DNA of 38,940 bases, from contig JAFQFS010000050.1 in the NCBI GenBank assembly GCA_017398585.1, positions 1 to 38,940 on the forward strand, written 5' to 3'. The position numbers were made by a program, and so were the translations under genes. Position 1 is the stretch's first letter, and each line of letters begins with the position of its first letter. This DNA comes from Clostridia bacterium (GTDB lineage: Bacteria > Bacillota > Clostridia > Oscillospirales > CAG-272). The notes under the pieces are model-generated. The model was given only the letters and a program-made list of their open reading frames with translations. It was not told where the DNA came from and did no database searches. This document shows, piece by piece, positions 22,098 to 38,696 of the stretch.

Positions 22098-23099
22098 ATG
22101 TCTACTAACGTTCGTCCCGAAACGATGGAACGCATCACGACGCCTGAACTTGCTGCTGCATTTATTGAGGAGCAGGTAGCGGAAGTCCGCGCGCAGGTAG
22201 GGGATAAGAAGGTACTGCTGGCGCTGTCCGGCGGTGTTGACTCGTCGGTTGTAGCGGCGCTGCTCATCAAGGCGATCGGGAAGCAGCTGGTGTGTGTTCA
22301 TGTAAATCACGGTCTGATGAGAAAGAACGAATCGGAGCAGGTTGTTGAGATTTTCCGCAATCAGCTCGACGCGAACCTCATTTATGTTGACGCGACCGAC
22401 CGTTTCCTTGATCTTCTGGCGGGTGTAGCGGATCCCGAACAGAAGAGAAAGATCATCGGCAAGGAATTCATTGAAGTATTTGCAGACGAAGCGCGCAGAC
22501 TGGAAGGCGTGGAATACCTTGCGCAGGGCACGATCTATCCGGATATTCTGGAAAGTATCAAGCAGGCGGAAGGCAAGAAGGCAGTCAAGTCCCACCACAA
22601 CGTCGGCGGTCTGCCGGAAGACCTGAAGTTTGAACTGGTCGAACCCATCAAGCTGCTGTTCAAGGACGAAGTACGCGTAGTAGGCGAAGCGCTCGGTCTG
22701 CCGCACGCGATGGTATACCGTCAGCCGTTCCCGGGTCCGGGTCTCGGCGTACGCTGCCTCGGTGCGATCACGAGAGACCGTCTGCACGCACTGCGTGAAG
22801 CGGACGCGATCCTCAGAGAGGAATTTGACAACTGCGGACTTGCGGAAAAGGTATGGCAGTATTTTGTAGCGGTTCCGGACATCAAGAGCGTCGGTGTGAG
22901 AGATGACAGCCGTTACGAAGGCTGGCCGGCGATCATCCGCGCGGTAAACACGAAGGACGCGATGACCGCAACGGTCGAAGAGATCCCGTACGCGGTACTG
23001 CACAAGATCACGTACCGCATCACACACGAGGTTGAAGGGATCAACCGTGTGCTCATGGATCTCACTCCCAAGCCGATCGGCACGATTGAGTGGGAATAA
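22098..23099 (+). CDS. guaA: GMP synthase, ATP-pyrophosphatase subunit only
   Basis: This enzyme adenylates XMP and aminates it to GMP. The 333-residue protein carries the PP-loop LALSGGVDSSVVAAL (about residues 44-58), the lid and XMP-binding parts KSHHNVGGLPEDL and RQPFPGPGLGVRCLG, and the C-terminal dimerisation domain ending PKPIGTIEWE. The N-terminal class I glutamine amidotransferase domain of the usual ~510-residue bacterial enzyme is absent, as in two-subunit GMP synthases. A separate amidotransferase must be elsewhere, or ammonia is used. The ATG has a strong GGAGGGG. The last codons contain GAGTGGGAAT, the integration site of the element that follows. The gene reads intact to its TAA. 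Confidence 0.95.
   Translation: MSTNVRPETMERITTPELAAAFIEEQVAEVRAQVGDKKVLLALSGGVDSSVVAALLIKAIGKQLVCVHVNHGLMRKNESEQVVEIFRNQLDANLIYVDATDRFLDLLAGVADPEQKRKIIGKEFIEVFADEARRLEGVEYLAQGTIYPDILESIKQAEGKKAVKSHHNVGGLPEDLKFELVEPIKLLFKDEVRVVGEALGLPHAMVYRQPFPGPGLGVRCLGAITRDRLHALREADAILREEFDNCGLAEKVWQYFVAVPDIKSVGVRDDSRYEGWPAIIRAVNTKDAMTATVEEIPYAVLHKITYRITHEVEGINRVLMDLTPKPIGTIEWE
23088..23097 (+). other. Left attachment site (attL) in the last codons of guaA
   Basis: GAGTGGGAAT overlaps the Glu-Trp-Glu-stop codons of guaA. The same ten bases occur at 38,687-38,696 just outside the last element feature. Confidence 0.65.
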
Positions 23100-23164
23100 G
23101 AAAAAATTAGCAAAACCGTGATTTTCCCGGGTGTACACCTGAGAAAATGCAGTTTTTCCGCTGA

Positions 23165-23185
23165 TTTGATAGCAGAATGATAGCA
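23165..23185 (+). other. Candidate integrase arm-binding sites, left end
   Basis: TGATAGCA occurs at 23167-23174 and 23178-23185, 11 bases apart. The 13-mer TTTGATAGCAGAA (23165-23177) recurs at 38566-38578 near the right end. Confidence 0.6.
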
Positions 23186-23262
23186 AACCGTGATCCCGAT
23201 TTATTTGTTATATTATCGGTGACAGACGGCTTGCAGGTGTATCCAATTCTATAACAAAGAGC

Positions 23263-23315
23263 AAAGGCTCTGTTGACTTTCTGTATTACGCAGAAGTCGG
23301 CAGAGCCTTTTTGTT
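23263..23315 (+). terminator. Long hairpin terminator at the left end of the element
   Basis: AAAGGCTCTG pairs with CAGAGCCTTT, and inside it GACTT-TCTG pairs with CAGAAGTC; TTTTTGTT follows on the plus strand. It ends the short transcript leaving guaA and abuts the stop codon of the repressor, which it may also terminate. Confidence 0.7.
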
Positions 23316-23805
23316 ATTCCGTTAAATCCTGAGGCGGAACCTTCACCGTGTCCGGACGATGATCGAAAGCAGGGTAGTGATACCGCCAGCGGTCGTATTC
23401 CTCTTTTGTGATCTCGCTGTTCTTGAGTTTCTGCGCCTGTTCGTTCCATGAATAGAACATCTCAAACAGGACTTTGTAATCGTTCCCCTTGAATTTATCC
23501 AGTCGCAGACAGACTTCGCCGTGGATCTCGCCGATTTTCAGTCCGTACACATCTTCCAGCGTGAACAGCGTGTGCATCAGACCGAGGTAGCTGTCGATGT
23601 TCGGAACATCCAGTGCCATCGGGGATACGTCCAGTACCTTCGCAAGCTCCGCCGTCAGGTCAGCTTTCGGGGTACGGGTGCCGGTTTCGTACTGCGCCAG
23701 ACGTACATCTGCGGACTTTTCCGGGAATCCGACGGACATCCCCAAAAACTTCTGCGTCATGCCGCGTAATAATCTGAAAAAGTGAATTCTCTCGCCGATT
23801 GCCAT
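23314..23805 (-). CDS. XRE-family repressor
   Basis: The 163-residue protein has an N-terminal helix-turn-helix of the Cro/CI type (about residues 1-65): IGERIHFFRLLRGMTQKFLG, then VRLAQYETGTRTPKADLTAELAKVLDV. The C-terminal part is unrecognised, with FEMFYSWNEQAQKLKNSEITKEEYDRWRYHYP resembling the tail of repressors in clostridial mobile elements. It is divergent from the excisionase-like and integrase genes; the two face-to-face promoters and a pair of 20-bp operator-like sites between them suggest it controls excision. No autocleavage or metallopeptidase motif is visible. Confidence 0.88.
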   Translation of the reverse strand: MAIGERIHFFRLLRGMTQKFLGMSVGFPEKSADVRLAQYETGTRTPKADLTAELAKVLDVSPMALDVPNIDSYLGLMHTLFTLEDVYGLKIGEIHGEVCLRLDKFKGNDYKVLFEMFYSWNEQAQKLKNSEITKEEYDRWRYHYPAFDHRPDTVKVPPQDLTE

Positions 23806-23842
23806 GTTATCTTTTACTCCCGTTTTATCTTAATTTGCATAC

Positions 23843-23871
23843 ATTATAGCATATTTGCTTAGTGTTGTCAA
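23843..23871 (-). promoter_or_regulatory. Sigma-A promoter for the XRE repressor gene
   Basis: On the minus strand, TTGACA (23866-23871) and TATAAT (23843-23848) with a 17-base spacer; both boxes are perfect. Confidence 0.88.
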
Positions 23872-23878
23872 TAATGTT

Positions 23879-23898
23879 CTAAATAAATTTGTTTAATT
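23879..23898. promoter_or_regulatory. Operator-like site 1 (between divergent promoters)
   Basis: The 20-base site CTAAATAAATTTGTTTAATT matches site 2 (23955-23974) at 16 of 20 positions. It has an inverted TAAA/TTTA symmetry and lies between the -35 boxes of the repressor and excisionase promoters. Confidence 0.5.
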
Positions 23899-23916
23899 TT
23901 ATCCCCTGCACAGGAC

Positions 23917-24002: not shown

Positions 24003-24215
24003 ATGGCAGAAAAAATCTTTATGCGTGTGGACGAAGTTGCGGAGGAACTGGGCGTTTCGGTTCCATATGCGTACAAGCTCATCAAAAGGCTGAACGAGGA
24101 ACTGAAAGCAACCGGCTGCATCACTATCGCCGGAAGGATCGACCGCAAATTCTTCTACGAAAAATTCTACGGAACCCGTGAAAATAAAAAGGAGGGGACG
24201 AATGGCAGCATTTAA
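24003..24215 (+). CDS. Excisionase-like small helix-turn-helix protein
   Basis: The 70-residue protein contains a winged helix-turn-helix of the type used by excisionases and small DNA-binding proteins: FMRVDEVAEELGVSVPYAYKLIKRLNEEL, then an RIDRKFFYEKFYG wing. AAAGGAG precedes the ATG. It overlaps the integrase start by 14 bases, so the two are translationally coupled. The placement directly before the integrase and under the repressor-controlled promoter supports a role in excision or its control; I do not see a family-specific signature beyond that. Confidence 0.78.
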   Translation: MAEKIFMRVDEVAEELGVSVPYAYKLIKRLNEELKATGCITIAGRIDRKFFYEKFYGTRENKKEGTNGSI

Positions 24216-25275
24216 GGACAAGAAAAACGGCTCATGGTACGTCCAGTTCCGGTACACGGACTGGCAGGGGAACCGTCAGCAGAAATTCAAGCGGGGATTC
24301 GCCACCAAGAAGGAAGCACAGGCATGGGAACGGGAATTTCTGATGCAGAAGCAGGCGGATGTGAACATGACTTTCGAAAGTTTCGCGGAACTTTATGAGA
24401 AGGATGTGAAGCCGAAACTGAAGCTGAACACATGGCTGTCGAAAGAAAACATCATCCGGACGAAAATCCTGCCCTACTTCGCAAAACGAAAGCTGTCCGA
24501 AATCACGGCAAGAGATGTGATCGACTGGCAGAACGAAATCCGGAAGCTGAAAACCTCCAAAGGCGAGCCGTATTCGATGGATTATCTGAAAAATGTCCAC
24601 ACCCAGCTCAGCTGCATCTTCAATCACGCGATCAAATACTACGGTTTGCAGATCAACCCGGCGCAGAAAGCGGGAAATATGGGAAGCGAATCCACGAAGG
24701 AAATGCTGTTCTGGACGAAGGAGGAATATCTGAAATTCATCGACGCCATGATGGACAAGCCCATGCTGTATTATGCGTTTGAAATCCTGTACTGGTGCGG
24801 CATCCGGGAAGGCGAACTGCTGGCACTGACTCCCGCAGATTTTGATTTCGAGAAGAAAACGCTCCGGATCAACAAATCCTATCAGCGGATCGGCGGTGAG
24901 GATGTCGTTACTACACCGAAGACGAAGAAAAGCAACCGGATCATTCAGATGCCGGACTTCCTCTGTGACGAAATGCAGGATTATTTCAAACAGTTCTACA
25001 GTTTGGACAGGGATGCGCGGATTTTCCCGCTGACGAAACACAGGCTGAAAAGCGGGATGGAGTACGGGTGTAAGATGTCCGGCGTGAAGGTCATAAGAAT
25101 CCACGATCTGAGACACAGCCACGTTTCGCTTCTTATCAACATGGGATATTCGGCGGTGGCAATCGGAAACCGCGTGGGGCATGAGAGCGTGGAAATCACT
25201 TACCGGTACGCGCATTTGTTCCCCACGGTGCAGAAAGAAATGGCGGATAAATTAAATCTGGAAAGGGAGGCATAA
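24202..25275 (+). CDS. Tyrosine recombinase (integrase)
   Basis: The 357-residue protein has the AP2-like arm-binding N terminus (SWYVQFRYTDWQGNRQQKFKRGF), a SAM-like core-binding domain (about 60-160) and the catalytic domain. Catalytic residues seen are Arg in CGIREGELLAL, His and Arg in IHDLRHSHVSLL, His in VGHESVEITY and the nucleophile Tyr336 in YAHL. The layout is that of Tn916/ICE-type integrases. The ATG at 24,202 has AAGGAGG upstream and is preferred over an upstream GTG. This enzyme should recombine the guaA 3'-end site. Confidence 0.95.
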   Translation: MAAFKDKKNGSWYVQFRYTDWQGNRQQKFKRGFATKKEAQAWEREFLMQKQADVNMTFESFAELYEKDVKPKLKLNTWLSKENIIRTKILPYFAKRKLSEITARDVIDWQNEIRKLKTSKGEPYSMDYLKNVHTQLSCIFNHAIKYYGLQINPAQKAGNMGSESTKEMLFWTKEEYLKFIDAMMDKPMLYYAFEILYWCGIREGELLALTPADFDFEKKTLRINKSYQRIGGEDVVTTPKTKKSNRIIQMPDFLCDEMQDYFKQFYSLDRDARIFPLTKHRLKSGMEYGCKMSGVKVIRIHDLRHSHVSLLINMGYSAVAIGNRVGHESVEITYRYAHLFPTVQKEMADKLNLEREA

Positions 25276-25279
25276 ATCT

Positions 25280-25612
25280 ATGTCAGCAAAAAATCTGGAT
25301 GGTCAGGGACGCTGGCGGAACGTGAATGTATCGTTCCGGGTGTCACCGGAAGAGGACAGGCTTCTGGAAACTTTCGTGAATCTGTCCGGTATGACCAAAC
25401 AGGACTATATTATAAGCAGACTGCTCTGCAGGGATGTGGTGGTACAGGGAAATCCGCGGGTGTACAAAGCTTTGCGGGATAAATATGAGGAGGTGGCTGC
25501 GGAACTGAAAAGAATTGAGAAGGGAGGTGATGTGTCGCCGGAATTACTTGAAACGATTGAATTTATGGCAGTAATCATGAATGGAATGAAGGAGGACACG
25601 AATGAATTCTGA
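25280..25612 (+). CDS. MobC-like mobilization accessory protein
   Basis: The 110-residue protein resembles small plasmid mobilization proteins: a basic N-terminal part with NVNVSFRVSPEEDRLLETFVNLSGMTKQDYIISRLL (a ribbon-helix-helix-like pattern), followed by a helical C terminus (YEEVAAELKRIEKGG). Such proteins bind near oriT and assist the relaxase. Its ribosome binding site lies within the end of the integrase gene, and its own end overlaps the next gene by 11 bases, so it is part of the integrase operon. Confidence 0.78.
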   Translation: MSAKNLDGQGRWRNVNVSFRVSPEEDRLLETFVNLSGMTKQDYIISRLLCRDVVVQGNPRVYKALRDKYEEVAAELKRIEKGGDVSPELLETIEFMAVIMNGMKEDTNEF

Positions 25613-26774: not shown

Positions 26775-27172
26775 AGCGCGACGGTCGCGACGATTGCGAC
26801 GGTCTATTTGACGGTACACAAAACACCGTTGCGACCGTCGCGGATCGTCGCGGTACACGGATGTCGTGCGACACAAGCCCCAAATCCCCGCCGCAGCGGG
26901 CAGGCAGGAATGGAAGATAGGTTTCATTTCTGCCCGGGAGGTGGTCATCCGCAGAGGAGCACCGACCATGACGGGTGAAATGTGGGACACATAGCAGCCG
27001 TCAGAGGACTTCGCAAAGTCCGCACACTTGCCCCCTGTCCGCAGACAGCCCACGGCACTTTGCAGCTGATCCTCAGAGCAGATGAAAGTGTTATAGTAGG
27101 TTATTACACTTCCGCAGAAGTGCATCCCCGTGAATAAAGTTCAGCTTACAAAATTGAGATTGGAGGAATTCT
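26775..27172 (+). other. Non-coding region: iteron-like repeats, hairpins and candidate oriT
   Basis: Three head-to-tail 9-mers, GCGACGGTC, GCGACGATT and GCGACGGTC (26778-26804), are followed by two inverted copies (26833-26841 and 26843-26851). Then come a GGCAG...CTGCC hairpin (about 26,909-26,940) and GGACTT/AAGTCC (about 27,007-27,022). Before the relaxase gene lies the inverted repeat AAGTGT...ACACTT (27086-27111) with further pairing. The arrangement, between a helicase gene and a relaxase gene, fits a replication origin plus oriT. No gene was seen here. Confidence 0.6.
27086..27111 (+). other. Candidate oriT inverted repeat
   Basis: AAGTGTTATAG and TTATTACACTT form an imperfect stem (one mismatch, one G-T) around a short loop, about 60 bases before the MobV relaxase start. 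MobV origins usually have such an inverted repeat next to the nick site. The nick itself cannot be placed. Confidence 0.4.
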
Positions 27173-28420
27173 ATGGCAAGAAACGACGGAATTGACCGCA
27201 CTACAGTGCGAAACGTCAACCTGTCAGAAACGAAAATTTCAAATACACAAAGACACAACGAACGTGAAAAAGATTCATACAGAAACGAGGATATTATGCC
27301 GGGACGAACGGCGTACAATGTCCACTATAAGACGCCGACGGGAAGTTACCGCGAAATGTTTGCACAGATGGAAGCGTCGAAAACGATCTCGACCAGAGGA
27401 TTGAAGGAGGATGCCGACCATTACGGGGAGCTGATCTTCGACGTGAACTCGGCGTACTTCCACAATCACGGCGGGTATGAGTTTGCGAAGAAGTTTTACG
27501 AAGATGCGTACAAATCCGCAGTCGAAATCGTCGGCGGTGAGCAATACATCCTGTCAGCAGTCATGCACGCGGACGAGCGGAACCGGGCGATGTCGGAAGC
27601 TCTCGGGAAGGATGTGTTCCACTATCATCTGCACGTTGTCTACATCCCGGTGGTCGAAAAACAGGTGCTGTGGACGAAGCGGTGCAAAGACCCGTCACTG
27701 GTTGGAACGGTCAAGGAAACGATCATGCAGGTCAGCAGCAGTAAGAAATGGCTGTCGAAACCGGCAGTTGATGAAATGGGAAATCCGATTTTACAGAAGA
27801 ACGGGAAGCCGGTGCTGAAAAAGTCGTACAGTCAGCTGCAGGACGATTTCTTCGACCATATGCGCGCCGCTGGTTATGAGGATGTGGAGCGCGGGGAACG
27901 TGGATCGACGGAAGAACATCTGACCGTGATGCAGTTCAAGATCGGGCAGGAACAGGCTCGGTTAGAAGAACTGCAGGAACAGCAGGCTAAGGAAACTGCC
28001 GGCTTTGAAAAGAAGAAAGCGAAGATTGAAAAACAGGAGACTAATCTCGAACGTATTGAGCAGATAGAAGCCAAGCCGATTCCGCTGACCTCGAAGGTAG
28101 CCGTGGAGAAAGCGGATTATGATCTGCTGAAATCTGCCGCGAACAAGTATGTTGTGCAGGAGAAGAAGGAATCGAAATTGCAAAAGGCACTGGACAAAGC
28201 AAAGAAGATGATTGCCGATCTGACGGCGGAACTGAAAGCGGTGAAGGCGGAACTGTTGGAGTATAAATCGGTCATCGGTAAACTGGATCGTGCCGGACTG
28301 GAAAGAGAAAATGCAGAACTGCGTGAGAAAGTCCGGTGGTATGATTCCATTATTGATGCGAAGAATTTACGGAATCTGTTTATTCGGCATGGCCATCGCA
28401 GACAGCAGGAACGGCAGTAA
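27173..28420 (+). CDS. MobV/Pre-family relaxase
   Basis: The 415-residue protein nicks DNA at oriT to start mobilization. Motif I appears as QRHNEREKDSY (residues about 27-37), and the histidine-rich metal site as FHYHLHVVYIPV (His150, His152, His154). The C-terminal third (about 255-390) is a long coiled coil rich in Lys/Glu (LEELQEQQAKETAGFEKKK and onward), as in other Pre/MobV proteins. GGAGGAATT precedes the ATG. It is the last large backbone gene before the cargo. Confidence 0.94.
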   Translation: MARNDGIDRTTVRNVNLSETKISNTQRHNEREKDSYRNEDIMPGRTAYNVHYKTPTGSYREMFAQMEASKTISTRGLKEDADHYGELIFDVNSAYFHNHGGYEFAKKFYEDAYKSAVEIVGGEQYILSAVMHADERNRAMSEALGKDVFHYHLHVVYIPVVEKQVLWTKRCKDPSLVGTVKETIMQVSSSKKWLSKPAVDEMGNPILQKNGKPVLKKSYSQLQDDFFDHMRAAGYEDVERGERGSTEEHLTVMQFKIGQEQARLEELQEQQAKETAGFEKKKAKIEKQETNLERIEQIEAKPIPLTSKVAVEKADYDLLKSAANKYVVQEKKESKLQKALDKAKKMIADLTAELKAVKAELLEYKSVIGKLDRAGLERENAELREKVRWYDSIIDAKNLRNLFIRHGHRRQQERQ

Positions 28421-28563
28421 CGTCTTGATCTGGAGAAAACGGGAAATTTCCGATGGGAGAGGTTGAACCGAACAGGATATTAAAACGACTTCTCCCATTG
28501 GGAAAAACAGCAGAAAAGCCAGGTGTAGACTTGGTGAAAATTTTGAAAAATCAGGGAGGTTTC

Positions 28564-28845
28564 ATGAGAAAGTCACAGAAGGAAACAATCGTAAGTTTTG
28601 ATGAGAGCAGCGAGCGTGTGAATGTATTTACGCATAACGCCGATCTGAAAAAGAGGTTGACGAAGTTTGCGGAGGATTATCCAAAGCTGTGCCGACTGAT
28701 TGATGATAACGGAATCGGCGGTATGGCGTTTGAGGTGGATAGAAAACGGTTTGGCTTCCGGCTGACGGCATCGTACACGGCGGAACGGAAGAAGGCGGCA
28801 AGTGAGTTGGCGAAGAAAAGAGGTATGGGAGGAAATATGGTATGA
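28564..28845 (+). CDS. Small conserved mobile-element protein, function unknown
   Basis: The 93-residue protein starts at the ATG after GGGAGG (MRKSQKETIVSFDESS); a longer frame from 28,453 is possible but lacks a ribosome binding site. It resembles a small protein often found beside relaxases on clostridial elements (pattern: VNVFTHNADLKKRLTKFAEDYP, then VDRKRFGFRLTASYTAERKKAA). No domain with a known function is recognised. Its TGA overlaps the next start in ATGA, so the two genes are coupled. Confidence 0.7.
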   Translation: MRKSQKETIVSFDESSERVNVFTHNADLKKRLTKFAEDYPKLCRLIDDNGIGGMAFEVDRKRFGFRLTASYTAERKKAASELAKKRGMGGNMV

Positions 28846-29092
28846 AGAAGATACGGAAGTGCGAATATAATATGGACTGGACACCGCCTGTGTTGAGTTG
28901 GGGTTAGATGATGGGACAGTGATCGCGATTGATACGATTGCTGTGGAGAACGAGGGGGCGGATAATATGTATCAGCGGAGTGAGCTGGACTGGCTGATCT
29001 ACAATGCGCCGCTGGAATGTGCGGAGCTGGTACTGAACGGGGATCCGGAGAGGTATCTGAAGGCTGTGGTAGAGTATAAGCGGCTTGACTGA
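28842..29092 (+). pseudogene. DUF6061-like small protein, frameshifted
   Basis: From the coupled ATG at 28,842 (GGAGG upstream) the frame gives MKKIRKCEYNMD, then stops at 28,905. The following part in another frame reads CVELGLDDGTVIAIDTIA and continues to YLKAVVEYKRLD at 29,092. Together they match the usual small protein of about 80 residues found in this position on clostridial elements, as I recall that family. A shift of one base between about 28,872 and 28,890 splits it. It may be a real pseudogene or a sequencing error; programmed frameshifting is less likely, as no slippery run was seen. Confidence 0.65.
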
Positions 29093-29096
29093 ATGA

Positions 29097-29145
29097 AAAT
29101 CGCCCGTGTCGGCAGAGTTGAATCTGTCGGTACGGGCGATTTTTC
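29097..29145 (+). terminator. Terminator at the end of the mobilization genes
   Basis: AAATCGCCCGT pairs with ACGGGCGATTT, with a second inner stem (GGCAGA/TCTGTC), followed by TTTT. It separates the backbone from the cargo. Confidence 0.88.
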
Positions 29146-29162
29146 GTAGACCCATGACAGAA

Positions 29163-29191
29163 TTGACAAAAAGTTCACAGTATGTTATAAT
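29163..29191 (+). promoter_or_regulatory. Sigma-A promoter for the first cargo gene
   Basis: TTGACA (29163-29168) and TATAAT (29186-29191), both perfect, with a 17-base spacer, about 54 bases before the ATG. The cargo thus has its own constitutive-looking promoter. Confidence 0.9.
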
Positions 29192-29244
29192 TGAAGCAAC
29201 AAATTTGGGCTACAAAAACTAAATTTTAGTTGAAGGAGAAATTT

Positions 29245-32200
29245 ATGATGAACAGCAGAAAAAACAAATTCATCAGCGGATTGCTTTCATTCGTTATGGT
29301 TATGACGATGATATTGGAGATACTGCCGCCGATTGAGGCTGGGGCAGCTGAGTTTTCAATATCTGTACCTAAAGATGGAGATACATATTGGCTGGAAGAT
29401 ATGTCACAGCCATATAATATTCTCTATGAAAAGTATGCGGATGCGGTACAACATTGGGTAACAATAACAGATTTATCTGACTACAGTGATATATTTGAAA
29501 CCATTACAGAAAGTGAAATAGTTTCAGTAGATCGCGATTTATTTGAGTATGGTGGTGAATATAGAGTTACAGTTATTCCTTTAGATAATTTGGGTGATCC
29601 GATTGGTGGAGGTACATTTTCAATAAGTAATGAATTTTCTGTCCATGATGAAATGTATCTTAATTTTTCGGAAAATGATATGCAGGTATCCAGTGAATCC
29701 AATACATATTACATTGATGTTGAGACAAATAATGATGATTTAAGTTGGACAATAGGTGAAAGTGTTTCATGGTTAACTTTTTCTCCTGATTCAGGTACAG
29801 GTAGTACTGAAGTTAAAGTAAAAGTTAGCAATTATGATAAAACAGAAGATCGAGTTGCATATGTTAATTTACAAAATAAAAAATATGATTTTAAATATCA
29901 ATTAAAAGTAACACAATCTGGGATAGATTATACACCACATCTTGAGGTTACAGAGGATAGTTTAACTTTTTCATCAGAGTCTGGTGATATAAAGACATTT
30001 AAAATAAAATCAAATGAATCATGGGAGTTGGACTATCCCGAGTGGGTTACCTGTGAACCTGACAGTAAAACGATAACAACTGGTAACACTAATACAACAA
30101 CAGTTACTGTAACAACAATCAGTGAGAATACATCTTCAAGTGCCAATAGAGGAACAATATATATTGAAACTGACAATTGTGAGACCGAAGTCGAAGTGAC
30201 TCAAGAGGGGAGCGATATCCCGGAACAAGAAGAACATCATCCCACAATCACTTTCAATGTTTCTCCGACAACCGTTACTGAAGGAGAGAAGATCACATTT
30301 TTCGGCGTAGCCGATGGTGATGGATATAAAATCAATGCTGTAAGCATCGGTGTGGCATATTATGAATCAGAAGAAAAATATTATGAAGAGCAAAACAAAG
30401 AAGATCCTTCTGCTGATGATGCGGTGTATTTAAGAGAACCGAATATCAGTGTTGACACATTTGATTATTCTTCCATAAAGGACGGTAGCATTCCCACTGG
30501 TTCTGATGAACCTTTGAAAGGGGAGCTTGATGTTGAAGGCGAATATGTGCCTCATGAGATTCTCATGAGGCCAGGTGTTTATACTTTTACAGCCCATGCA
30601 TATTCTGACGAATATGGTAAGGAATTTGAACAGGTGTCCAAAACGGTGCGTATAGAACCTGATGAAGAAATACAGGAAGAAATTCAATTGGATTCTTTCA
30701 AGATTACCAATACCAATACAACTGTTAATAGAGGCTCCTCCTATATGCTCGAATGGGATGCCCCTGCTAATGCGCCTGACGGAACGACATACAGCATATT
30801 TGTCTGGGAATATTCCAATACCACAGAAGTCGGCTCTACGACAGATACCTGGTTTGAAATTCCGAGTAAATGTTTTGCCAACGCAGAGGTTGTTGCGATT
30901 ACTGTATACGCCAATGCAGACGGTTACAAGCAAAGTGAATGTGAAGAAACTCTGAATGTAACTGTAATCGAGGATGATACGAAAACACCGTGTGTTACTT
31001 CCGTTGTTCCCGACCCTCCTGCAGGAGATATGAACACTACCTATACCTTTACGGCGTATGCTGAAAATACAGATACTGTGGTATTTTACATGAATTCCAC
31101 AAAGATCGCAACTGTAACTGGTTCGAATGGAGAATTTGTCTGCTCATACAGCGGATTCCGTAAAGCAGGAACCAGAACTGTATTTGCATATCCTGTTGAC
31201 AGCAATGGAAATGAATTAAGAACGAACGGCTGTTTTGCTTCTGCCGAGATTACCATTGAAGCGGAAGGGAACCTCGAAAATATCAAGTATATCACAGAGT
31301 CCTATCAGAATATTGACGTGAATTCTTCCTTTGAGCTTGCATGGGAAAGACCTGAAAATGCACCGGAGGATATCGATATATCTTATATTATTTATGTCCA
31401 TAATGACGATGGTAAGGTAGGCGACGAATTTGAAGAATCCAGTGAATCTACCGTGATTCCGGCGTCCTATTTTGCAGAAGAAGGAAGATACACGATTTCT
31501 GTATATGCCGTTGCGGATAACTGGTCACAGAGCGAATATTCTGCAATTACAGTCTATGTGGAAGCTTCTGTTCCTACCATCAGCGGCTACAGACTTTCTC
31601 ATGCCACAATTCCGCGGGACGGTTCCTTTACTATGAAGGGGACTGTGGACGGCAACGGAGACGATCTGACAGAAATCCTTGTCAAAGCTGTGAATACATC
31701 CAGCGGAACTTCCGGTGAACTCTATTCGGATTCGCTGAATGACAGCGAGTTTGATCTGGCGGATATTCCAGCGCTCTGTCCTGCTAACAGTGGTCTCACG
31801 GAAGCCGGGACATATACGATCAGTGTTTATGCAAAAACTGTGGGAGCTACTTCCGCGACTTTACTGGGAAAATCCAGTCTTTATGTTTCGGCAGATTCCA
31901 AAATAACACTGGATACTCCTCAGCTGAACGGGACAAGCACTCTCGAATACGGTGAAAACTACATAATTTCCTGGAACTACGATTCCGCAGTGGATTACTA
32001 CAGCATTTCTGTGGGCGGATATTCCACAAAAATGACGGCAGATGCTTCGGAGGGATCGTATTCTATTCCTGCGTCCATTTTCAAAAAGCTGAGCAATGGT
32101 TCTTCGTATAACTGCACGATCTATGTACAGGCAATGAGCAAGGATACGGACAACTATCTTTCCAGTGCGACTGCGGAAAAGAAGATTACTGTTGCGGCAA

Positions 32201-35200
32201 AATCTGAAGCAACGGCGATCATCAAATCTGCGGAAATCGTTGGATTAAGCGCAGATAAGGTGATTATCGGCGGAACGGAAGTGGAATTTGAAGTTGTTAC
32301 TTCCACGGATGTCACAGCACTCCGAATGAAGGACGGGGCAGGTTCATTCGTCATCAATACATGGACAACCGGATATACCGATTCCGGGGACAACCGTACA
32401 TGGACGGTAACACAGAAAGTAAACTACGCCGGCGGCAATGACGCAACCGGTGCGAAACGTATGCTTACATTCTACTCGATGATCGGTGATATCGAATATA
32501 ACACATACAATATCAGCTTCTACTGTCAGAAGGGCGATACAATCGGCACCTTCTCTGTTCTCGCGCCTAAAAACAATTCGGTACAGGATGAAGGCAAGAA
32601 TCTGCGGATCACATGGAGCAAACCGCAGAACACGGATGTGGACAGCTATATTCTTGAGGTTATTCACAACGAACAGACGGTTGTGAGAGAAGAAATTCGC
32701 GGAAAGTGCGAATATACGCTGGACGGCTCGTATCTGGTGCGCGACAACAATGCATGGAAGATTCAGATTACTGCGCGGAAGGATGCCGGACAGTGGTCGG
32801 AAAGCAGCGCATTTGCTACGTTTACGCTGAGCTGTACGCATGAAAAGAAGAATCCTTCTTCGGAACGTGTTCTTTCGTATACAAACACCGGCAATGGACA
32901 CAGAATGGAGGTTGAGATTACCTCTACCTGTGAGGGCTGCGGTCTGGAAATCGTAGAAGAGAAGCCGGAAATCCGTACGGAGGAACATAAGTTTGTCGAC
33001 CTTACAGAGGGCGGCAAGGTATGCAACTGCTGTTGGTACTTGGTCAATGATGGTACATTTACGGACACGACAGAATACATTGCCAAGGAAAAATCCTATG
33101 CTTACACGAATGTACGCAAAGATGGAACACCGTATGGCGTACAGTATGTCAACGGGAATAAAAGTTCTATTCGCACGATATTTGCGGGAGATAAGATTAC
33201 GATTATTGGAAAGTTGAATGGATGCTGTCTGGTAGAGTATCCGATCAGTGGAGGAGCTTCGGCTAGAAGCAGTGGAGGATATTGGTATGGATTTGTGAAG
33301 GAAAGTGTGTTGGATGAAAAGGAAATCAAACAAGAAAATCCCAGTGAGGGAACATCAAATATTCAACAATATGTACAAGCAATGTACGATGCGGTGCTGG
33401 CTTTAGATGAATCTGAATTGAAAGCAAAACAGATATTTGAAAATGAATATTATCTTGCTCAATATTTTTGCGACTATTGGAGTAAGGAATATGGATGGTA
33501 TGATCAACTTCAAAGGAATGGGCTTAGTGGAAAGGGAATAATTTTTAATAATATTGAACGACTTTTTAATACTGAAGCATACCTATTCGATTTAGAATAC
33601 GAATTACTACAGACTGCTATTTCTGAAATTCCTCCGAGTTTTGACAATAATAATACATTACATGATACAAAAATTAATACTCAGGATGATGTTAATAATA
33701 TCGTTGAAGTAATTTTTGAATTTGTTGACACTGCAGGGGAGATCTATGGGGAAGATTTTTCGAAATTAGGTGATGAATGTTACAAAGTGATTTCATCAAG
33801 AATATCTAAAATATCCGAGGTATTTGATGAGGGGCTAAATTGGAAATGTGTATCTAATGGTATGATTGATCAACTGGCAAAAAATGCTCGTGGCACTGTA
33901 ATTAGTGCTGTCTTTGAGGCAGTTCGAGCATATAATGCATATACTAACTTTAGAATAGCTGCTGAATTAGAATATTTTGAGGTTTTGAGAGATATATTCA
34001 TGGGCGATGAGAATATAATAAAAGTGATAGATGAACTAGAAGTAGACTATTTAAATAAGGTGACTGCATTTTCGAATTGTTTATTTGATTTTGTATTGTC
34101 TCAAACGGGCGAGGAAACTGCAAGCTATATAGTTGCTCTGGTACTTCCTGAAATTGTTGTTATAGCTAAAGCAACCGATGTTATTCTCAAAGCAATAGGA
34201 ACTGTATCGGGTTTAACAAAGAATGTTAATAGCAAAGAATTACTCGCTCTTTACGGATGGATATTGTATGATACCAGATATTCATATATATCAAAACTCA
34301 TGTCATATAATGGAAGTTATCATGATGCATGTGTAATTGAATCTTATTATCAGGTATGGCGAGGTATGCAAATTTACTATAACGGAATAGTGATAGACTA
34401 TCTCGAATCCAGCGATGAATATGATTATAGAATTGTAGGTCAACTTGAAGATGAGATTGAGCAATTAAAAAAACAAGACATTTCAAATTGGACTTTCAAT
34501 GAATGTGGTTTTCTCCAAGAAATTCCAGACACATCTTCATTAAGTGATAATTACTATATGAATATTTTATTATATGGTTATCCTTTCAAGAAAGCCAATA
34601 ATTATGATGGTGTGATTGAAAATTGGGATAAAATGACGACGTATCAAAAAATGGAGTCTAATGAGATAATCACGAATCTTGTAGAGTTCAACAAATATGA
34701 TGTAAGCCGATTATATGTGATGGAAATGATAACAAAAGATTCTTACGGCAACATCCAAGACACTTCATTTTCAATAACCAATAATCATATGATGACAGAT
34801 AGTTATTTATACGTAAATGAAATTGGGATGGGACTTCATTTTACACGATGGTATGTTCCTCATACTGCTGGAACGAGATATTCACCGTTTTATGTAACTT
34901 GTTATACGGTATTAGATAATAGACAAGTTTTAAACCTGTTGACAGGTAATACTCCTATGCGAACCGAATGGCTTTCGGTTAACAGCGAACGTTGGGATGT
35001 GTTTTGGATTTGTACATCTTTTGAGTATTCCACGTATGTTAATAAGTATATTGAATATGATATAAATGTTGAAGAATATCATAAAGGGTTGAATATACTT
35101 CTTGGAGAAAGAGCGTGTTCTAATATTCAATTTGATTTACGGCCTGAAGATATATTAACATCAATGTTTGGGTTAGGTAATATGTGGGGGAATATATATC

Positions 35201-35292
35201 CTAATTACGGGCGATATGGAGGATATGTTAAGAGGTTTGGGAAAGGAAAAGTAGTTGATACTAGTAACCTTACGTTAATTGTCTATTCATGA
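29245..35292 (+). CDS. Giant secreted BACON/Ig-like/SH3-like protein with unrecognised C-terminal third
   Basis: The ~2,015-residue protein starts at ATGATG after AAGGAG. It has a signal peptide (to about residue 35), an N-terminal beta domain, two BACON-type domains (about 138-227 and 232-322, each ending in a VTQ motif), then a run of about seven Ig/fibronectin-III-like repeats (about 331-1195) with a recurring EYGENYIISWNYDSA-type start. A Cys/His cluster follows (CTHEKK, CEGCGLE, CNCCWY; about 1197-1275), then an SH3-like segment (about 1276-1360) with GDKITIIGKLNGCCLVEY and YWYGFV. The last ~650 residues are an alpha-rich part with a hydrophobic stretch (about 1620-1655) and a Tyr/Asn-rich tail, with no family I know. 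The DNA is AT-rich at both ends and GC-richer in the middle. No LPxTG or other anchor is seen; adhesion or a secreted effector role is possible, unproven. Confidence 0.8.
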   Translation: MMNSRKNKFISGLLSFVMVMTMILEILPPIEAGAAEFSISVPKDGDTYWLEDMSQPYNILYEKYADAVQHWVTITDLSDYSDIFETITESEIVSVDRDLFEYGGEYRVTVIPLDNLGDPIGGGTFSISNEFSVHDEMYLNFSENDMQVSSESNTYYIDVETNNDDLSWTIGESVSWLTFSPDSGTGSTEVKVKVSNYDKTEDRVAYVNLQNKKYDFKYQLKVTQSGIDYTPHLEVTEDSLTFSSESGDIKTFKIKSNESWELDYPEWVTCEPDSKTITTGNTNTTTVTVTTISENTSSSANRGTIYIETDNCETEVEVTQEGSDIPEQEEHHPTITFNVSPTTVTEGEKITFFGVADGDGYKINAVSIGVAYYESEEKYYEEQNKEDPSADDAVYLREPNISVDTFDYSSIKDGSIPTGSDEPLKGELDVEGEYVPHEILMRPGVYTFTAHAYSDEYGKEFEQVSKTVRIEPDEEIQEEIQLDSFKITNTNTTVNRGSSYMLEWDAPANAPDGTTYSIFVWEYSNTTEVGSTTDTWFEIPSKCFANAEVVAITVYANADGYKQSECEETLNVTVIEDDTKTPCVTSVVPDPPAGDMNTTYTFTAYAENTDTVVFYMNSTKIATVTGSNGEFVCSYSGFRKAGTRTVFAYPVDSNGNELRTNGCFASAEITIEAEGNLENIKYITESYQNIDVNSSFELAWERPENAPEDIDISYIIYVHNDDGKVGDEFEESSESTVIPASYFAEEGRYTISVYAVADNWSQSEYSAITVYVEASVPTISGYRLSHATIPRDGSFTMKGTVDGNGDDLTEILVKAVNTSSGTSGELYSDSLNDSEFDLADIPALCPANSGLTEAGTYTISVYAKTVGATSATLLGKSSLYVSADSKITLDTPQLNGTSTLEYGENYIISWNYDSAVDYYSISVGGYSTKMTADASEGSYSIPASIFKKLSNGSSYNCTIYVQAMSKDTDNYLSSATAEKKITVAAKSEATAIIKSAEIVGLSADKVIIGGTEVEFEVVTSTDVTALRMKDGAGSFVINTWTTGYTDSGDNRTWTVTQKVNYAGGNDATGAKRMLTFYSMIGDIEYNTYNISFYCQKGDTIGTFSVLAPKNNSVQDEGKNLRITWSKPQNTDVDSYILEVIHNEQTVVREEIRGKCEYTLDGSYLVRDNNAWKIQITARKDAGQWSESSAFATFTLSCTHEKKNPSSERVLSYTNTGNGHRMEVEITSTCEGCGLEIVEEKPEIRTEEHKFVDLTEGGKVCNCCWYLVNDGTFTDTTEYIAKEKSYAYTNVRKDGTPYGVQYVNGNKSSIRTIFAGDKITIIGKLNGCCLVEYPISGGASARSSGGYWYGFVKESVLDEKEIKQENPSEGTSNIQQYVQAMYDAVLALDESELKAKQIFENEYYLAQYFCDYWSKEYGWYDQLQRNGLSGKGIIFNNIERLFNTEAYLFDLEYELLQTAISEIPPSFDNNNTLHDTKINTQDDVNNIVEVIFEFVDTAGEIYGEDFSKLGDECYKVISSRISKISEVFDEGLNWKCVSNGMIDQLAKNARGTVISAVFEAVRAYNAYTNFRIAAELEYFEVLRDIFMGDENIIKVIDELEVDYLNKVTAFSNCLFDFVLSQTGEETASYIVALVLPEIVVIAKATDVILKAIGTVSGLTKNVNSKELLALYGWILYDTRYSYISKLMSYNGSYHDACVIESYYQVWRGMQIYYNGIVIDYLESSDEYDYRIVGQLEDEIEQLKKQDISNWTFNECGFLQEIPDTSSLSDNYYMNILLYGYPFKKANNYDGVIENWDKMTTYQKMESNEIITNLVEFNKYDVSRLYVMEMITKDSYGNIQDTSFSITNNHMMTDSYLYVNEIGMGLHFTRWYVPHTAGTRYSPFYVTCYTVLDNRQVLNLLTGNTPMRTEWLSVNSERWDVFWICTSFEYSTYVNKYIEYDINVEEYHKGLNILLGERACSNIQFDLRPEDILTSMFGLGNMWGNIYPNYGRYGGYVKRFGKGKVVDTSNLTLIVYS

Positions 35293-35356
35293 AGTTTTAT
35301 GCAAACAACTAATTTAAAAACTAAAGATTTTTTCTGAATCACACAGGAGAACCAAC

Positions 35357-38300
35357 ATGAAACGACTACTATCATTTATCCTCATACTATCCCTACTATG
35401 CGTGCTTCTGACCTATCCGCTGAATGCGGAGGATAATGCCGTAATAAGCGTAACAACAATGATTGACCCCGGTTTTTCGTCCGCAGTTCCGATCGCCGAA
35501 AGCGGGAGCATTGTTGACCTTAACATCAACGGTGCATATCAGTATTACACCTTCACCCACACTGCGGAAGACAATTTTACCGCAGAGGTTGTCTCAACTT
35601 CATCCGTGAAAATCAAATACGAACTGTATGATTCCGATTTTTCCCTCATGGAGGAATTCACTGCTCCTGCCAATGACTCTTACAGCAGCGGATGGTATCC
35701 GCTGCCTCAGGGGACATACTATATCAAAGTATACCCGGCTTTCGGAAACACCGCTTCCGGAACGCTGTGTATCAATTTTGCGGCAGAGGAAACTTTATTG
35801 AAAGACCCCGGATTTGCATCAGCAGAACCGATCCTTGACGTAAAAACTTCATATAAGTTTAGTGCTGAAGGAACTTATTGTTACTTTGTTTTTAAGCCGA
35901 TGGAACAGCTTAATGTCCATTTGAGCCTTTCAAACGGTTCTCAGGGTGAATTGGCGTGGGAATTATTCGATGAGAATTATTCGCTTATATATTCCTATGT
36001 TATGCCTAAAGCAAATGGTATGTTACATACTTTGCAGGCAACCCCCGGCGTATATTATATAAGATTCTTTTCAACAGGAGATAATGCAATCAGTGGCAGT
36101 CTGAGTATCAACAATGATGTTCCTTTGGCAAATCCAAAATATATTCCTTTACAGGACTTCCAGATTGAAGAATCCTTATTGGAACTCCAGGTTGGGGATA
36201 CTTATCAGCTGACTCCTATATTTACTCCCACAGATGCAGATTACCAGACGGTTTTCTGGCAGAGTGATGACAGCAGTGTTGTAGAAGTTTCTGACAACGG
36301 AATCATTACTGCTATGAAAAAAGGAACTGCAACGATTACTGGAAATGTTACAGAGACATATGATGGTAAAGTAGCTACCTACAGCGATACAGTAAGCGTG
36401 GTAGTAGGGGATAACTTGGAATTGACTGACCCTGGTTTTGAATCGGCGGAAGAACTTCATATCAGTGGAGAAGTTATTGATTTGTCTTTTAACGGTGCAG
36501 TGAAATATTATACTTTCTTCCTGCAGGGAGATATGGATTTTGGTGCGGAACTCGTATCAACTTCTTCTTCTGCGATAAAGTTTGAATTGTATGATTCACA
36601 ATATTCTCTTGTCGATGAATATATTGTGCAGGCGAATCTCTCGTATAGTATCGGATATCATTCGTTAGAATGGGGAACATATTATGTGAAAGTGTACCCC
36701 CTGAACACTTCTGATGCTACAGGGACATTATGTATTACATCTCTGGCGATAGAACCTATAATGAAAGACTCTGGTTTTTCCTCCGCGTTTCATATCACGG
36801 ATACGGATGTTTCATATATTTTTGAGGGATTGTATGAGTACATATATTTTTCATTTGATATGACGGAAATTGGTGTTGCAGATATATATATCATGAACAC
36901 ATCTGAAGGGCATATCGAATACGAATTATATCAGGGACAGGATACGGTATTATTCCGATATGATATGAGTGAAGGGGCAAATTATACCTATTCACCTGAA
37001 CTTTCGGCAGGAAGATATTACGTAAGAGTCTATACTCCGTGGAATCATGCATTCAGCGGAAGAATCAATGTTTATTCCGATGTTCTCGGCGATGGTACTG
37101 TGCCGGATACTCCTGAAAGCGATTCTGACTCAAGTGCAAAGCTGAGAGTCTACGAACCGACTTACGAATATGTCCGTCAGTTCAAGGATAATTACGCAAC
37201 CGTTTATAATAATGGAGTCTATTCCCTCGTGGATACGCAGAACAATCAGCACTATTCTACCAATCAGGACGGGTTCGGAGATTACTCGGAAGAAATCGTT
37301 GCGATCTATGATGCGGACAAGCACGAAATCACCTTTACGCGTCTTGACGGATATTCCTTCGCTTTTATCGGTTATATCTGGGCGGGAGAATTCCTTGGCG
37401 GTAAGTGTGTCATTGTTGACGAGGACGGGAAATACGGTCTGATTGATACTTCCGGAAACTTTATTGTTGATTGTATATATGATGACATCGAGTACGATAT
37501 GTCGGATACAGTGCTGCTGTATTCCGATTCTGTGTGGACACCGTATACGATCGGGCAGGACAGTACATATTCTCTGTATTCACGTTCTGCGGTTACAGAA
37601 ATCTATAATCCTGTTCTGTCTGTGACGGGAGAACATATCATAGCTTCCGACGGAACGGCATACGGAATTCTGACAACGGATAATGTTCCTCTGACTGCGT
37701 TTGAATACGATCTGATCCATGATGCGGAAGACGGACTTTTTGTCGGTTATAGCGGAGATTACGTGTATCTGATTGAAACAGACGGTACTGTTTCTGCTAC
37801 GCTTACTGCCTACTATGTCGGAGGATATTCGGAAGGAAAACTTGCGGTATATGACGGTACAGAGTTCTTCTATGCTGATAAAAACGGAAACCGAGTTGTG
37901 GAACTTTCTGTTGAGGACGTAGTATCGGCGGAAGAGTTTCATGAGTCTCTGGCTGTAGTATGTGTTGATAACAAAGGATATACTTACATCAATACTTCCG
38001 GTGAGATTGCTGTGGATTCCTACTGGGATTATGCGGCACAGTTTGCAGAAGGATATGCACTGGTTATGAACTATATCACAGATGGCGACGGTAATATGCT
38101 GCGAAGATGGAATGTTATTGATATGGATTTCAATAATGTGCTTACATTGGAAGATGATGTATATATTGATGCCGCCGACGAACATTCCGCGGACTTTTCG
38201 AATGGCTATATACGCACTGTTGACAGAAATACCGGTTTGATGGGATTTGTTCAACTGGAGAGTGCGGCTTCAGAAAATATTACGGGCGACCTCAACGAAG

Positions 38301-38479
38301 ACGGAACAGTATCTGTGAAAGATGTACAGTATTTCCTGGCATATCTTACATCTCCGGAAGAATATCCGCTCAATGCAGCTGATGTTGACTATAATGGTGA
38401 CGGGGAAGTGAATCGTGCAGATGCTCTGTATCTGCTTCGTTATACCATTCTTCCGGAACGGTATCCATTGTCCAGGTAA
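35357..38479 (+). CDS. Secreted dockerin protein with duplicated beta-domain module and WG-like repeats
   Basis: The 1,040-residue protein has a signal peptide (to about residue 24) and GGAG before the start. Four related beta domains of about 110 residues, each opening DPGF-SA (near 36, 148, 356 and 469), look like pre-peptidase C-terminal (PPC)-type domains. A Big_2-like Ig domain (about 264-355: LLELQVGDTYQLTPIF, NGIITAMKKGTATITG) lies in the middle. After a Ser/Asp linker (about 586) comes a WG-type repeat region (about 600-970: GKYGLIDTSGNFIVDCIYDD). The C terminus is a type I dockerin (about 977-1037) with two calcium loops, DLNEDGTVSVKD and DYNGDGEVNRAD. It should be exported and dock to a cohesin scaffold. 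It sits 65 bases after the giant protein gene, probably in one transcript. Confidence 0.87.
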   Translation: MKRLLSFILILSLLCVLLTYPLNAEDNAVISVTTMIDPGFSSAVPIAESGSIVDLNINGAYQYYTFTHTAEDNFTAEVVSTSSVKIKYELYDSDFSLMEEFTAPANDSYSSGWYPLPQGTYYIKVYPAFGNTASGTLCINFAAEETLLKDPGFASAEPILDVKTSYKFSAEGTYCYFVFKPMEQLNVHLSLSNGSQGELAWELFDENYSLIYSYVMPKANGMLHTLQATPGVYYIRFFSTGDNAISGSLSINNDVPLANPKYIPLQDFQIEESLLELQVGDTYQLTPIFTPTDADYQTVFWQSDDSSVVEVSDNGIITAMKKGTATITGNVTETYDGKVATYSDTVSVVVGDNLELTDPGFESAEELHISGEVIDLSFNGAVKYYTFFLQGDMDFGAELVSTSSSAIKFELYDSQYSLVDEYIVQANLSYSIGYHSLEWGTYYVKVYPLNTSDATGTLCITSLAIEPIMKDSGFSSAFHITDTDVSYIFEGLYEYIYFSFDMTEIGVADIYIMNTSEGHIEYELYQGQDTVLFRYDMSEGANYTYSPELSAGRYYVRVYTPWNHAFSGRINVYSDVLGDGTVPDTPESDSDSSAKLRVYEPTYEYVRQFKDNYATVYNNGVYSLVDTQNNQHYSTNQDGFGDYSEEIVAIYDADKHEITFTRLDGYSFAFIGYIWAGEFLGGKCVIVDEDGKYGLIDTSGNFIVDCIYDDIEYDMSDTVLLYSDSVWTPYTIGQDSTYSLYSRSAVTEIYNPVLSVTGEHIIASDGTAYGILTTDNVPLTAFEYDLIHDAEDGLFVGYSGDYVYLIETDGTVSATLTAYYVGGYSEGKLAVYDGTEFFYADKNGNRVVELSVEDVVSAEEFHESLAVVCVDNKGYTYINTSGEIAVDSYWDYAAQFAEGYALVMNYITDGDGNMLRRWNVIDMDFNNVLTLEDDVYIDAADEHSADFSNGYIRTVDRNTGLMGFVQLESAASENITGDLNEDGTVSVKDVQYFLAYLTSPEEYPLNAADVDYNGDGEVNRADALYLLRYTILPERYPLSR

Positions 38480-38484
38480 AAGAC

Positions 38485-38513
38485 TTGCATTGGTCCGTAT
38501 AATGTGGTATAAT
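38485..38513 (+). promoter_or_regulatory. Outward-facing promoter at the right end of the element
   Basis: TTGCAT (38485-38490) and TATAAT (38508-38513) with a 17-base spacer point out through the right end. No ORF follows within the window. Confidence 0.55.
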
Positions 38514-38543
38514 ACAGATACTTAAACCAAGCTTTCCAGGCAG

Positions 38544-38578
38544 TGATAGCATTCGCCGATAGCTGTTTGATAGCAGAA
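38544..38578 (+). other. Candidate integrase arm-binding sites, right end
   Basis: TGATAGCA occurs at 38544-38551 and 38568-38575, with CGATAGCT between them at 38557-38564. The copies are spaced 13 and 11 bases apart and match the left-end motif. Confidence 0.6.
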
Positions 38579-38686
38579 AGTCATATACCCTATAGAATAC
38601 GGATACTACACATCAAACACATCAAATAAAACCAAATGAGATCAAATCGCCCATACAGAAAAGTTTAGAACCCGATTTCATTTGGC

Positions 38687-38696
38687 GAGTGGGAAT
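38687..38696 (+). other. Right attachment site (attR)
   Basis: GAGTGGGAAT repeats the last bases of guaA (23088-23097). It marks the outer edge of the element, about 110 bases beyond the arm-like repeats. Confidence 0.65.

What the first reader, a model, noticed from the sequence alone, without database searches (positions are those of the whole stretch)
23088..38696. A ~15.6-kb mobilizable element stitched into the guaA 3' end, carrying two giant secreted proteins
Seen: GAGTGGGAAT at both ends (guaA stop region and 38,687), integrase, excisionase-like gene, repressor, RepA-like ATPase, MobC-like protein, MobV relaxase, and cargo of 6.0 and 3.1 kb in just two genes. Established: tyrosine integrases of genomic islands use the 3' end of guaA and keep the gene intact. 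Inferred: the element moves surface or cellulosome-type proteins between gut bacteria. A mobilizable element devoted to a dockerin protein and a BACON giant is unusual; most carry resistance or defence genes.
Basis: partly seen in the sequence, partly recalled or inferred. Interest (0 to 1): 0.75.

Follow-up and report, generated by a model that had tools for sequence, protein, structure and literature searches.

The report
Mobile element with swappable-tip giant protein
A 15.6-kb DNA element inserted at the end of the guaA gene in a gut Clostridium, built to be carried between cells by conjugation, holds two very large secreted proteins, one of which belongs to a family whose tail end has been swapped between otherwise near-identical proteins.

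Summary
GAGTGGGAAT occurs exactly twice (23088, 38687; 0 of 100 shuffles had two) and bounds a 15.6-kb integrative mobilizable element (IME) in the guaA 3' end: repressor, excisionase-like gene, tyrosine integrase, NikA-like protein, RepA-like ATPase, MOBV-type oriT, MobV relaxase, cargo. Sister elements confirm both ends and show a shared backbone with exchanged cargo: of 17 loci searched, 8 gave defence-type hits and 5 tetracycline protection. Besides the window, only G015 has the two giants in such an element. In G004 guaA is joined directly to the window's right flank, but that flank is another guaA element's end: these elements stack. Site, core and MobV match published guaA elements (ATE-1, GIsul2), so the vehicle is a known kind. 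The cargo is the surprise: the 2,020-aa protein is modular. Stalks up to 96% identical end in C-terminal tips without detectable similarity, and related tips recur on different stalks. Its partner is a WG-repeat, dockerin protein. Best guess: a mobile surface-binding pair with recombining tips; a toxin-like role is the main rival, though no immunity gene was seen. Excision, transfer and function are untested.

The parts
22071..23099 (+). short guaA (ATP-PPase/C-terminal part of GMP synthase), the integration target
   Evidence: PF00958, no GATase hit; 29 loci of relatives compared at its 3' end
23088..23097 (+). attL core GAGTGGGAAT inside the guaA 3' end
   Evidence: same core GAGTGGGA published for GIsul2 (PMC9376610, passages)
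23167..23185 (+). two TGATAGCA repeats, arm-type-like (inferred)
   Evidence: pattern found 4 times in the window, all within 160 bp of the two cores
23314..23805 (-). HTH_3 repressor-like protein
   Evidence: PF01381
24003..24215 (+). excisionase-like HTH protein
   Evidence: HTH_17 below cut-off; ICEBs1 Xis model E 1.4e-9, below cut-off
24202..25275 (+). tyrosine integrase
   Evidence: PF00589, PF14659, PF14657; 97% identical in G008
25280..25612 (+). NikA-like (MobC-type) relaxosome accessory protein
   Evidence: PF21983
25602..26774 (+). RepA-like AAA_25 ATPase
   Evidence: PF13481
26777..26852 (.). GC-rich repeats and inverted repeats, possible replication origin (inferred)
27084..27111 (+). 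oriT-like site, TAGTAGG/TTA, predicted nick 27100/27101
   Evidence: conserved upstream of mobV; motif in 38 of 53 loci; mapped MOBV nicks TAGTGTG/TTA and TAGTGCG/TTA (PMC5090054, passages)
27173..28420 (+). MobV relaxase
   Evidence: PF01076, 97 bits against cut-off 25.5; NCBIfam MobV E 1.5e-9 but below its cut-off
28453..29092 (+). two small backbone proteins of unknown role (28453-28845, 28898-29092)
   Evidence: no family hit; first one recurs in several sister elements
29145..38501 (.). cargo slot
   Evidence: similarity to G008 stops at 29144; similarity of the right end to G015 starts at 38502
29230..35292 (+). giant 1, 2,020 aa, exported; BACON/Ig-like N-part, stalk (aa 860-1361, 31807-33312) and exchangeable tip (aa 1362-2020, 33313-35289)
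35357..38479 (+). giant 2, 1,040 aa: PPC-like and Big_2 parts, WG-repeat core, dockerin (38285-38443)
38544..38575 (+). two TGATAGCA repeats near the right end, arm-type-like (inferred)
   Evidence: also present in the G015 right end
38687..38696 (+). attR core GAGTGGGAAT
   Evidence: right-end similarity of L062, L078, L090 stops exactly at 38696
38697..38820 (.). end of another guaA-targeting element (remnant)
   Evidence: 94% identical over 134 bp (38687-38820) to the DNA right after guaA in G004; no integrase in the remaining 120 bp of the window

Best explanation
Vehicle (well supported): an integrative mobilizable element of about 15.6 kb. Its tyrosine integrase recombines GAGTGGGAAT in the guaA 3' end with the same core on the circular element; the element supplies a new stop codon, so guaA stays intact. 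The xis-like protein would aid excision, the repressor restrain it, the RepA-like ATPase keep the circle replicating; MobV would nick at 27100/27101 and a helper's mating pore carry the strand to a new cell (all inferred from anatomy). The backbone has a cargo slot between mobV and attR that is filled differently in sisters. Cargo (less certain): here it holds a two-gene surface pair. Giant 1 is a long exported fibre with a conserved stalk and an exchangeable C-terminal tip; giant 2 is a WG-repeat protein whose dockerin could dock on a host cohesin. Most likely role: attachment to other cells, host glycans or plant fibre, tip swapping being kept by diversifying selection. My odds: element 0.9; tip exchange 0.85; attachment rather than another function 0.45.
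For: Exact, unique end repeats. guaA C-terminus unchanged by insertion. G008: same left end and backbone, 85-92% DNA identity, while its guaA is 75% and its SpoIIE 40% and 63% in two stretches; integrase 97%; cargo replaced after 29144 by GmrSD/NsnA-like and type I methyltransferase-like genes. G015: same left end behind guaA on one contig; both giants and the same right end (86%) on another. Right ends identical up to the core and different after it in L072/L077/L079 and in L084/L086. oriT motif in 38 of 53 loci fits mapped MOBV nick sites. Family transfer: backbone 99.6% identical over 5.8 kb between Mitsuokella jalaludinii and a Flavonifractor, guaA 74%. Giants side by side in the window, G015 and G269. 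Tip exchange. Host has 2 cohesin hits and 4 dockerin hits and 2 conjugative coupling-protein hits.
Against: No excision, circle or transfer data. The window ends 244 bp after attR. The G004 junction is occupied by a different element. The nick site of the window has A where the two mapped sites have G (TAGTAGG). MobV, xis and repressor score below NCBIfam's curated cut-offs. No domain in giant 1 shows binding beyond BACON and Ig-like hits; the tip model was too poor to use (pLDDT 46.8). The dockerin is not conserved in the G269 partner. The giant pair also sits on a contig of G269 without any element gene hit, between hisS and PEPCK genes, so it is not tied to IMEs.
Confidence: 0.75

Rival explanations
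1. The cargo is an antagonism system: giant 1 presents a swappable toxic or pore-forming tip, as polymorphic toxins do, and helps carrier and element compete.
For: Constant stalk with abruptly exchanged C-terminus, the layout of polymorphic toxins (layout recalled). Sister elements carry competition-related cargo such as restriction systems.
Against: No immunity-like gene: the next gene is giant 2 in the window, G015 and G269, and giant 2 stays 80% identical where the tip is different (P0001/P0015, taken as neighbours from their shared longest contig length). Tips are 552-692 aa (one 999), large for such toxins (recalled). No toxin domain hit.
Confidence: 0.3
2. A former mobile element, now fixed: it no longer excises, and the giants are kept as ordinary chromosomal genes.
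For: Stacked remnant at the right; the giant pair is chromosomal in G269.
Against: Backbone genes are open and 85-92% identical to G008 while host genes are more diverged; both cores exact.
Confidence: 0.12
3. Assembly chimera: the two ends or the giants were joined wrongly in the MAG.
For: MAG of 178 contigs, 73.6% complete; guaA contigs of several relatives end close to the gene.
Against: G008 and G015 independently join guaA to the same left end; G015 independently joins the end of the backbone to giant 1 (80% over window 28878-29336) and giant 2 to the same right end.
Confidence: 0.03

Closest known systems
ATE-1 of Trueperella pyogenes (IME, 10.8 kb, tet(W)); PMC5704250 passages, PMC12904643 passages
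   Same: tyrosine integrase, 3' end of guaA, MobV relaxase, similar size, one main cargo gene
   Different: host phylum and cargo; sequence homology not tested here (record not fetched)
GIsul2 (genomic island at guaA); PMC9376610 passages, PMC5704250 table passage
   Same: integration site GAGTGGGA in the guaA 3' end, tyrosine integrase, RepA; excision and integration shown there by experiment
   Different: Proteobacterial hosts, sul2 cargo; relaxase class not compared
Streptococcal IMEs with guaA- or rplL-targeting (Tyr_3) integrases and tandem accretion; PMC5357655 passages
   Same: guaA target, stacking of elements at one site
   Different: most have other relaxases; no such giants in the passages seen
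pMV158 / IMESag-rpsI (MOBV oriT and relaxase); PMC5090054 and PMC5863519 passages
   Same: relaxase class and nick-site motif TAGTnnG/TTA just upstream of the relaxase gene
   Different: integration site, backbone and cargo
Polymorphic toxin systems (recalled)
   Same: constant long N-part, exchanged C-terminus
   Different: no immunity gene seen; much larger tips; conserved large partner gene
Cellulosome components (recalled)
   Same: dockerin on giant 2, cohesin hits in the host
   Different: no catalytic domain hit; dockerin absent in the G269 relative

Membership tests
Integrative mobilizable element (IME) | own site-specific recombinase and defined ends | tested here: met
   integrase; att cores; ends conserved in sisters
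Integrative mobilizable element (IME) | own relaxase and oriT | tested here: met
   PF01076; conserved nick-like motif
Integrative mobilizable element (IME) | no mating-pore genes of its own | tested here: met
   the ten main proteins given to Pfam include none; the element is filled by them; shorter ORFs not searched except 28898-29092
Integrative mobilizable element (IME) | excises and is mobilized by a helper | not testable with these tools
   needs reads or mating tests
guaA-targeting islands (GIsul2 type) | core GAGTGGGA in the guaA 3' end, gene kept intact | tested here: met
ATE-1 family | homologous integrase and relaxase sequences | not tested
   the ATE-1 record was not fetched; only published features compared
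MOBV relaxase/oriT | Mob_Pre domain and TAGTGnG/TTA nick site upstream of the gene | tested here: met
   Pfam over cut-off, NCBIfam MobV below cut-off; window has TAGTAGG/TTA, one base off; sisters mostly TAGTGGG/TTA
Polymorphic toxin system | constant N-part with exchangeable C-terminal domain | tested here: met
   16 proteins compared, shuffle control
Polymorphic toxin system | small immunity gene next to the exchanged end | tested here: not met
   next gene is giant 2 in three of three loci read
Polymorphic toxin system | toxic activity of the tip | not testable with these tools
   no domain hit; fold model unusable
Cellulosome component | dockerin with a cohesin scaffold in the host and a catalytic or binding module | tested here: inconclusive
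   dockerin over cut-off; 2 cohesin hits on C24; no catalytic domain hit

The most novel reading that the evidence does not exclude
IMEs of this guaA family move a so far undescribed two-gene system of gut Clostridia: a giant exported fibre that exchanges its whole C-terminal tip (at least two unrelated tip classes, one of them very diverse, spread over three stalk lineages) beside a WG-repeat partner that stays constant. It would be a mobile, combinatorial way to change what a gut bacterium binds or attacks.
Probability: 0.4. Interest if true: 0.8.

Novelty: new variant of a known kind. Interest (0 to 1): 0.58.

Why it matters
One small mobile backbone, with sister elements in at least two classes of gut Bacillota, has a cargo slot that holds defence genes, tetracycline protection or, here, a surface system. 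That links the spread of resistance and the diversification of gut-bacterial surfaces to one type of vehicle. The tip-swapping giant is a directly testable candidate for a mobile specificity determinant.

Tried and rejected

One search was added to test by Pfam what I had named by eye (SpoIIE, hisS, aspS, PEPCK, the missing dockerin in G269), and to count giants over all 143 loci held. Mended: 29 guaA loci, not 31 (one search prints L005-L033 besides two copies of the window); 'three unrelated tip classes' became 'at least two', because P0010 shares short weak hits with the large class; identity figures for P0001 per block corrected.
Full report
OBSERVATION. The 10-bp repeat GAGTGGGAAT is exact at 23088 and 38687 and absent elsewhere in the window. 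The window is one whole contig (C39) of a MAG with 178 contigs, 73.6% complete, so nothing beyond 38,940 can be read.

ENDS. In the filled site guaA ends ...EWE-TAA; joining its end to 38,697 gives ...EWE-TGA, so the insertion leaves the protein unchanged. In G004, of the same genus, guaA (93% identical protein) is followed directly by DNA 94% identical over 134 bp to window 38687-38820. In G004, however, it leads into a minus-strand integrase 51% identical to ours, so it is the end of a different guaA element. In the window the match stops at 38,820 and the remaining 120 bp show no integrase. The window is therefore a stack: guaA, this element, and at least a remnant of another. Of 29 guaA loci of relatives printed (L005-L033), two share our left end (L008 of G015, L027 of G008) and one our right flank (L006 of G004); the other 26 differ, several with other paired short repeats (seen by eye).

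SISTERS. G008: left end, repressor, xis, integrase (97% protein), accessory genes and MobV are 85-92% identical in DNA, whereas guaA is 75% and SpoIIE matches in two stretches at 40% and 63% protein identity. Similarity stops at window 29,144; the cargo there holds a GmrSD/NsnA-like protein and a type I-like methyltransferase, and the contig ends inside it. G015: the left end sits behind guaA on one contig (89-92%, guaA 82%). A second contig holds both giants (37% and 59% in tblastn) and our right end (86% over 38502-38703). Right-end similarity in L062, L078 and L090 stops exactly at base 38,696 and in L094 two bases before. L072, L077 and L079 show the same right end up to the core and different DNA after it; so do L084 and L086, with L089 nearly the same.

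FAMILY. A scan of one genome per species with the MobV protein gave 53 loci. Of these 53, 34 have a related integrase just upstream of mobV, 25 a guaA end just before it, 31 an attL pattern, 38 the oriT motif, 14 a downstream att pattern, and 11 both att patterns. 13 of the 53 are distant relaxases under 55% identity, none with the oriT motif; of the other 40, 38 have it (L063 and L111 do not). Several loci are short contigs. Tandem elements are seen in L062, L066, L072, L076, L079 and L095. Of 395 genomes of the family, 8 including our own have a relaxase hit at E<=1e-40.

CARGO SLOT. I listed cargo ORFs for 25 element loci and ran family searches on part of the cargo of 17 of them. 8 gave PADLOC hits of defence type (L139, L062, L066, L095, L063, L064, L068, L108). 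5 gave a TetM/TetW/TetO/TetS-type ribosomal protection protein over cut-off (L072, L078, L080, L090, L093). 4 gave neither: L084 transglutaminase-like, L111 M42 peptidase and L092 no hit (Pfam only), L085 no hit (PADLOC only). Caveats: the five tetracycline loci carry closely related elements and are not independent; L063, L064, L068, L108, L080 and L093 show no att pattern downstream, so the far end of their element is not fixed. Of 143 loci held, relatives of the giants beyond the dockerin occur, besides the window's own, only in loci of G015 (an element) and G269. The G269 pair lies on a 26.7-kb contig without any element-gene hit, between hisS/aspS and PEPCK genes. In whole-genome searches giant 1 was found in 3 of 395 family genomes including our own (E<=1e-20) and giant 2 only in our own among 394 order genomes (E<=1e-40; whether G015 and G269 were in that draw is not shown).

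TRANSFER EVIDENCE. The backbone of a tetracycline-type sister is 99.6% identical over 5.8 kb between Mitsuokella jalaludinii (L080, Negativicutes) and a Flavonifractor (L077), while guaA beside it is 74%. Our own element shows the same trend with G008 and G015. Upstream of mobV is a conserved block with TAGTAGG/TTA in the window and mostly TAGTGGG/TTA in the sisters aligned. It fits the mapped MOBV nick sites TAGTGTG/TTA and TAGTGCG/TTA (PMC5090054, passages), with one base different in the window. GIsul2 uses the guaA site GAGTGGGA, with excision and integration shown by experiment (PMC9376610, passages). ATE-1 is a guaA-targeting IME with MobV and tet(W) (PMC5704250, passages). So the vehicle is a known kind. 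The host MAG has two coupling-protein-like hits, so a helper is possible.

GIANTS. Giant 1 has 11 homologues for its C-terminal part and 13 for the stalk of the G015 version, together 13 different proteins, none named by a source. I compared 16 proteins (window, G015, G269, P0001-P0011, P0043, P0044). Stalks: lineage I (window, P0001: 89%), lineage II (G015, P0002, P0003: 92-96%), lineage III (P0004-P0011, P0044: 82-100%, with G269 at 71-76%), and P0043 apart (39-43%). Tips, grouped by BLAST single linkage: a broad class alpha (window, P0002, P0003, P0004-P0006, P0044, P0043, G015, G269; many pairs only 18-31%), class beta (P0001, P0007-P0009, P0011; no hit to alpha), and P0010 with only short weak hits to alpha. 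P0004 and P0007 have 96% identical stalks and tips without a BLAST hit; window and P0001 (89% stalks) likewise. G015 and P0002 (96% stalks) have tips at about 21% over 218 residues, while P0002's tip is closest to the window's (39% over 677 residues) although their stalks are only 48% identical. Both alpha and beta tips occur on lineages I and III. Shuffle control: window tip against P0001 tip scores 46 (shuffled mean 48), against P0010 48 (46), against P0002 1170 (50), against G015 122 (51, maximum 82), so window and G015 tips are remote relatives. Along window and P0001 the identity per 100 residues is 58-94% from 301 to 1300 and 16-27% after 1400. Caveats: P0004 and P0005 are identical in these parts, and P0007, P0008, P0009 and P0011 nearly so, hence not independent; most homologues lie on contigs I could not fetch, so I do not know which are on elements.

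GIANT 2 has a WG-repeat core (593-964) shared by all eight close homologues and by the G015 and G269 partners and variable N-termini: LRR_5 in G015 and P0015, not in the window; P0013 is 95-100% identical from about residue 600 on and much lower before. Dockerin: present in the window, G015 and P0015, absent in G269, whose end looks like a membrane segment (by eye).

FUNCTION. Shown: modular exchange, gene pairing in three loci, domain content. Inferred: export, surface display, docking on a host cohesin (2 hits on C24), attachment role. The toxin-like rival is kept at 0.3 because the layout fits it but no immunity gene was found.

VERDICT. A real, well-bounded element of a known kind with unusual cargo; the new part is the tip-swapping giant and its constant partner.

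Noticed in passing
L077, L080 (also L072, L074, L079, L081): A guaA element with a tetracycline ribosomal protection gene has a backbone at least 99.5% identical over 5.8 kb in Mitsuokella, Flavonifractor, Pseudoflavonifractor and MAGs, beside diverged guaA genes (product names for L072 and L080).
   Followed up: partly
window 22071-23099; G030:C4, G052:C9, G073:C122, G081:C39: The target is a short guaA without a GATase-domain hit; in these four relatives a short and a longer guaA-like match lie side by side. Why the short copy exists is unexplained.
   Followed up: no
L136:10003-10200: To the right of the G015 element three GAGTGGGAAT cores follow each other about 90 bp apart, like scars of repeated insertion and loss.
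   Followed up: no
L005, L007, L010, L011, L013, L014, L016, L023, L024, L030, L031: guaA ends of relatives are followed by many different sequences with paired short repeats (GGCAAC, GATAAG, GGACAA types), suggesting a hotspot for several integrase families (by eye).
   Followed up: no
L070 (record called Bacteroidales), L074 (record called Smithella): The tetracycline-type guaA element backbone on short contigs of records named after other phyla (for L074); mis-binning or wide transfer.
   Followed up: no
G000:C24:3694-4728 and C24:37325-38062: Host contig with a dockerin hit, two cohesin hits and, further on, a conjugative coupling-protein hit.
   Followed up: no
L068:18896-21047, L064:18360-19817: GajA-like and SpbK-like defence proteins downstream of mobV in guaA elements.
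   Followed up: no
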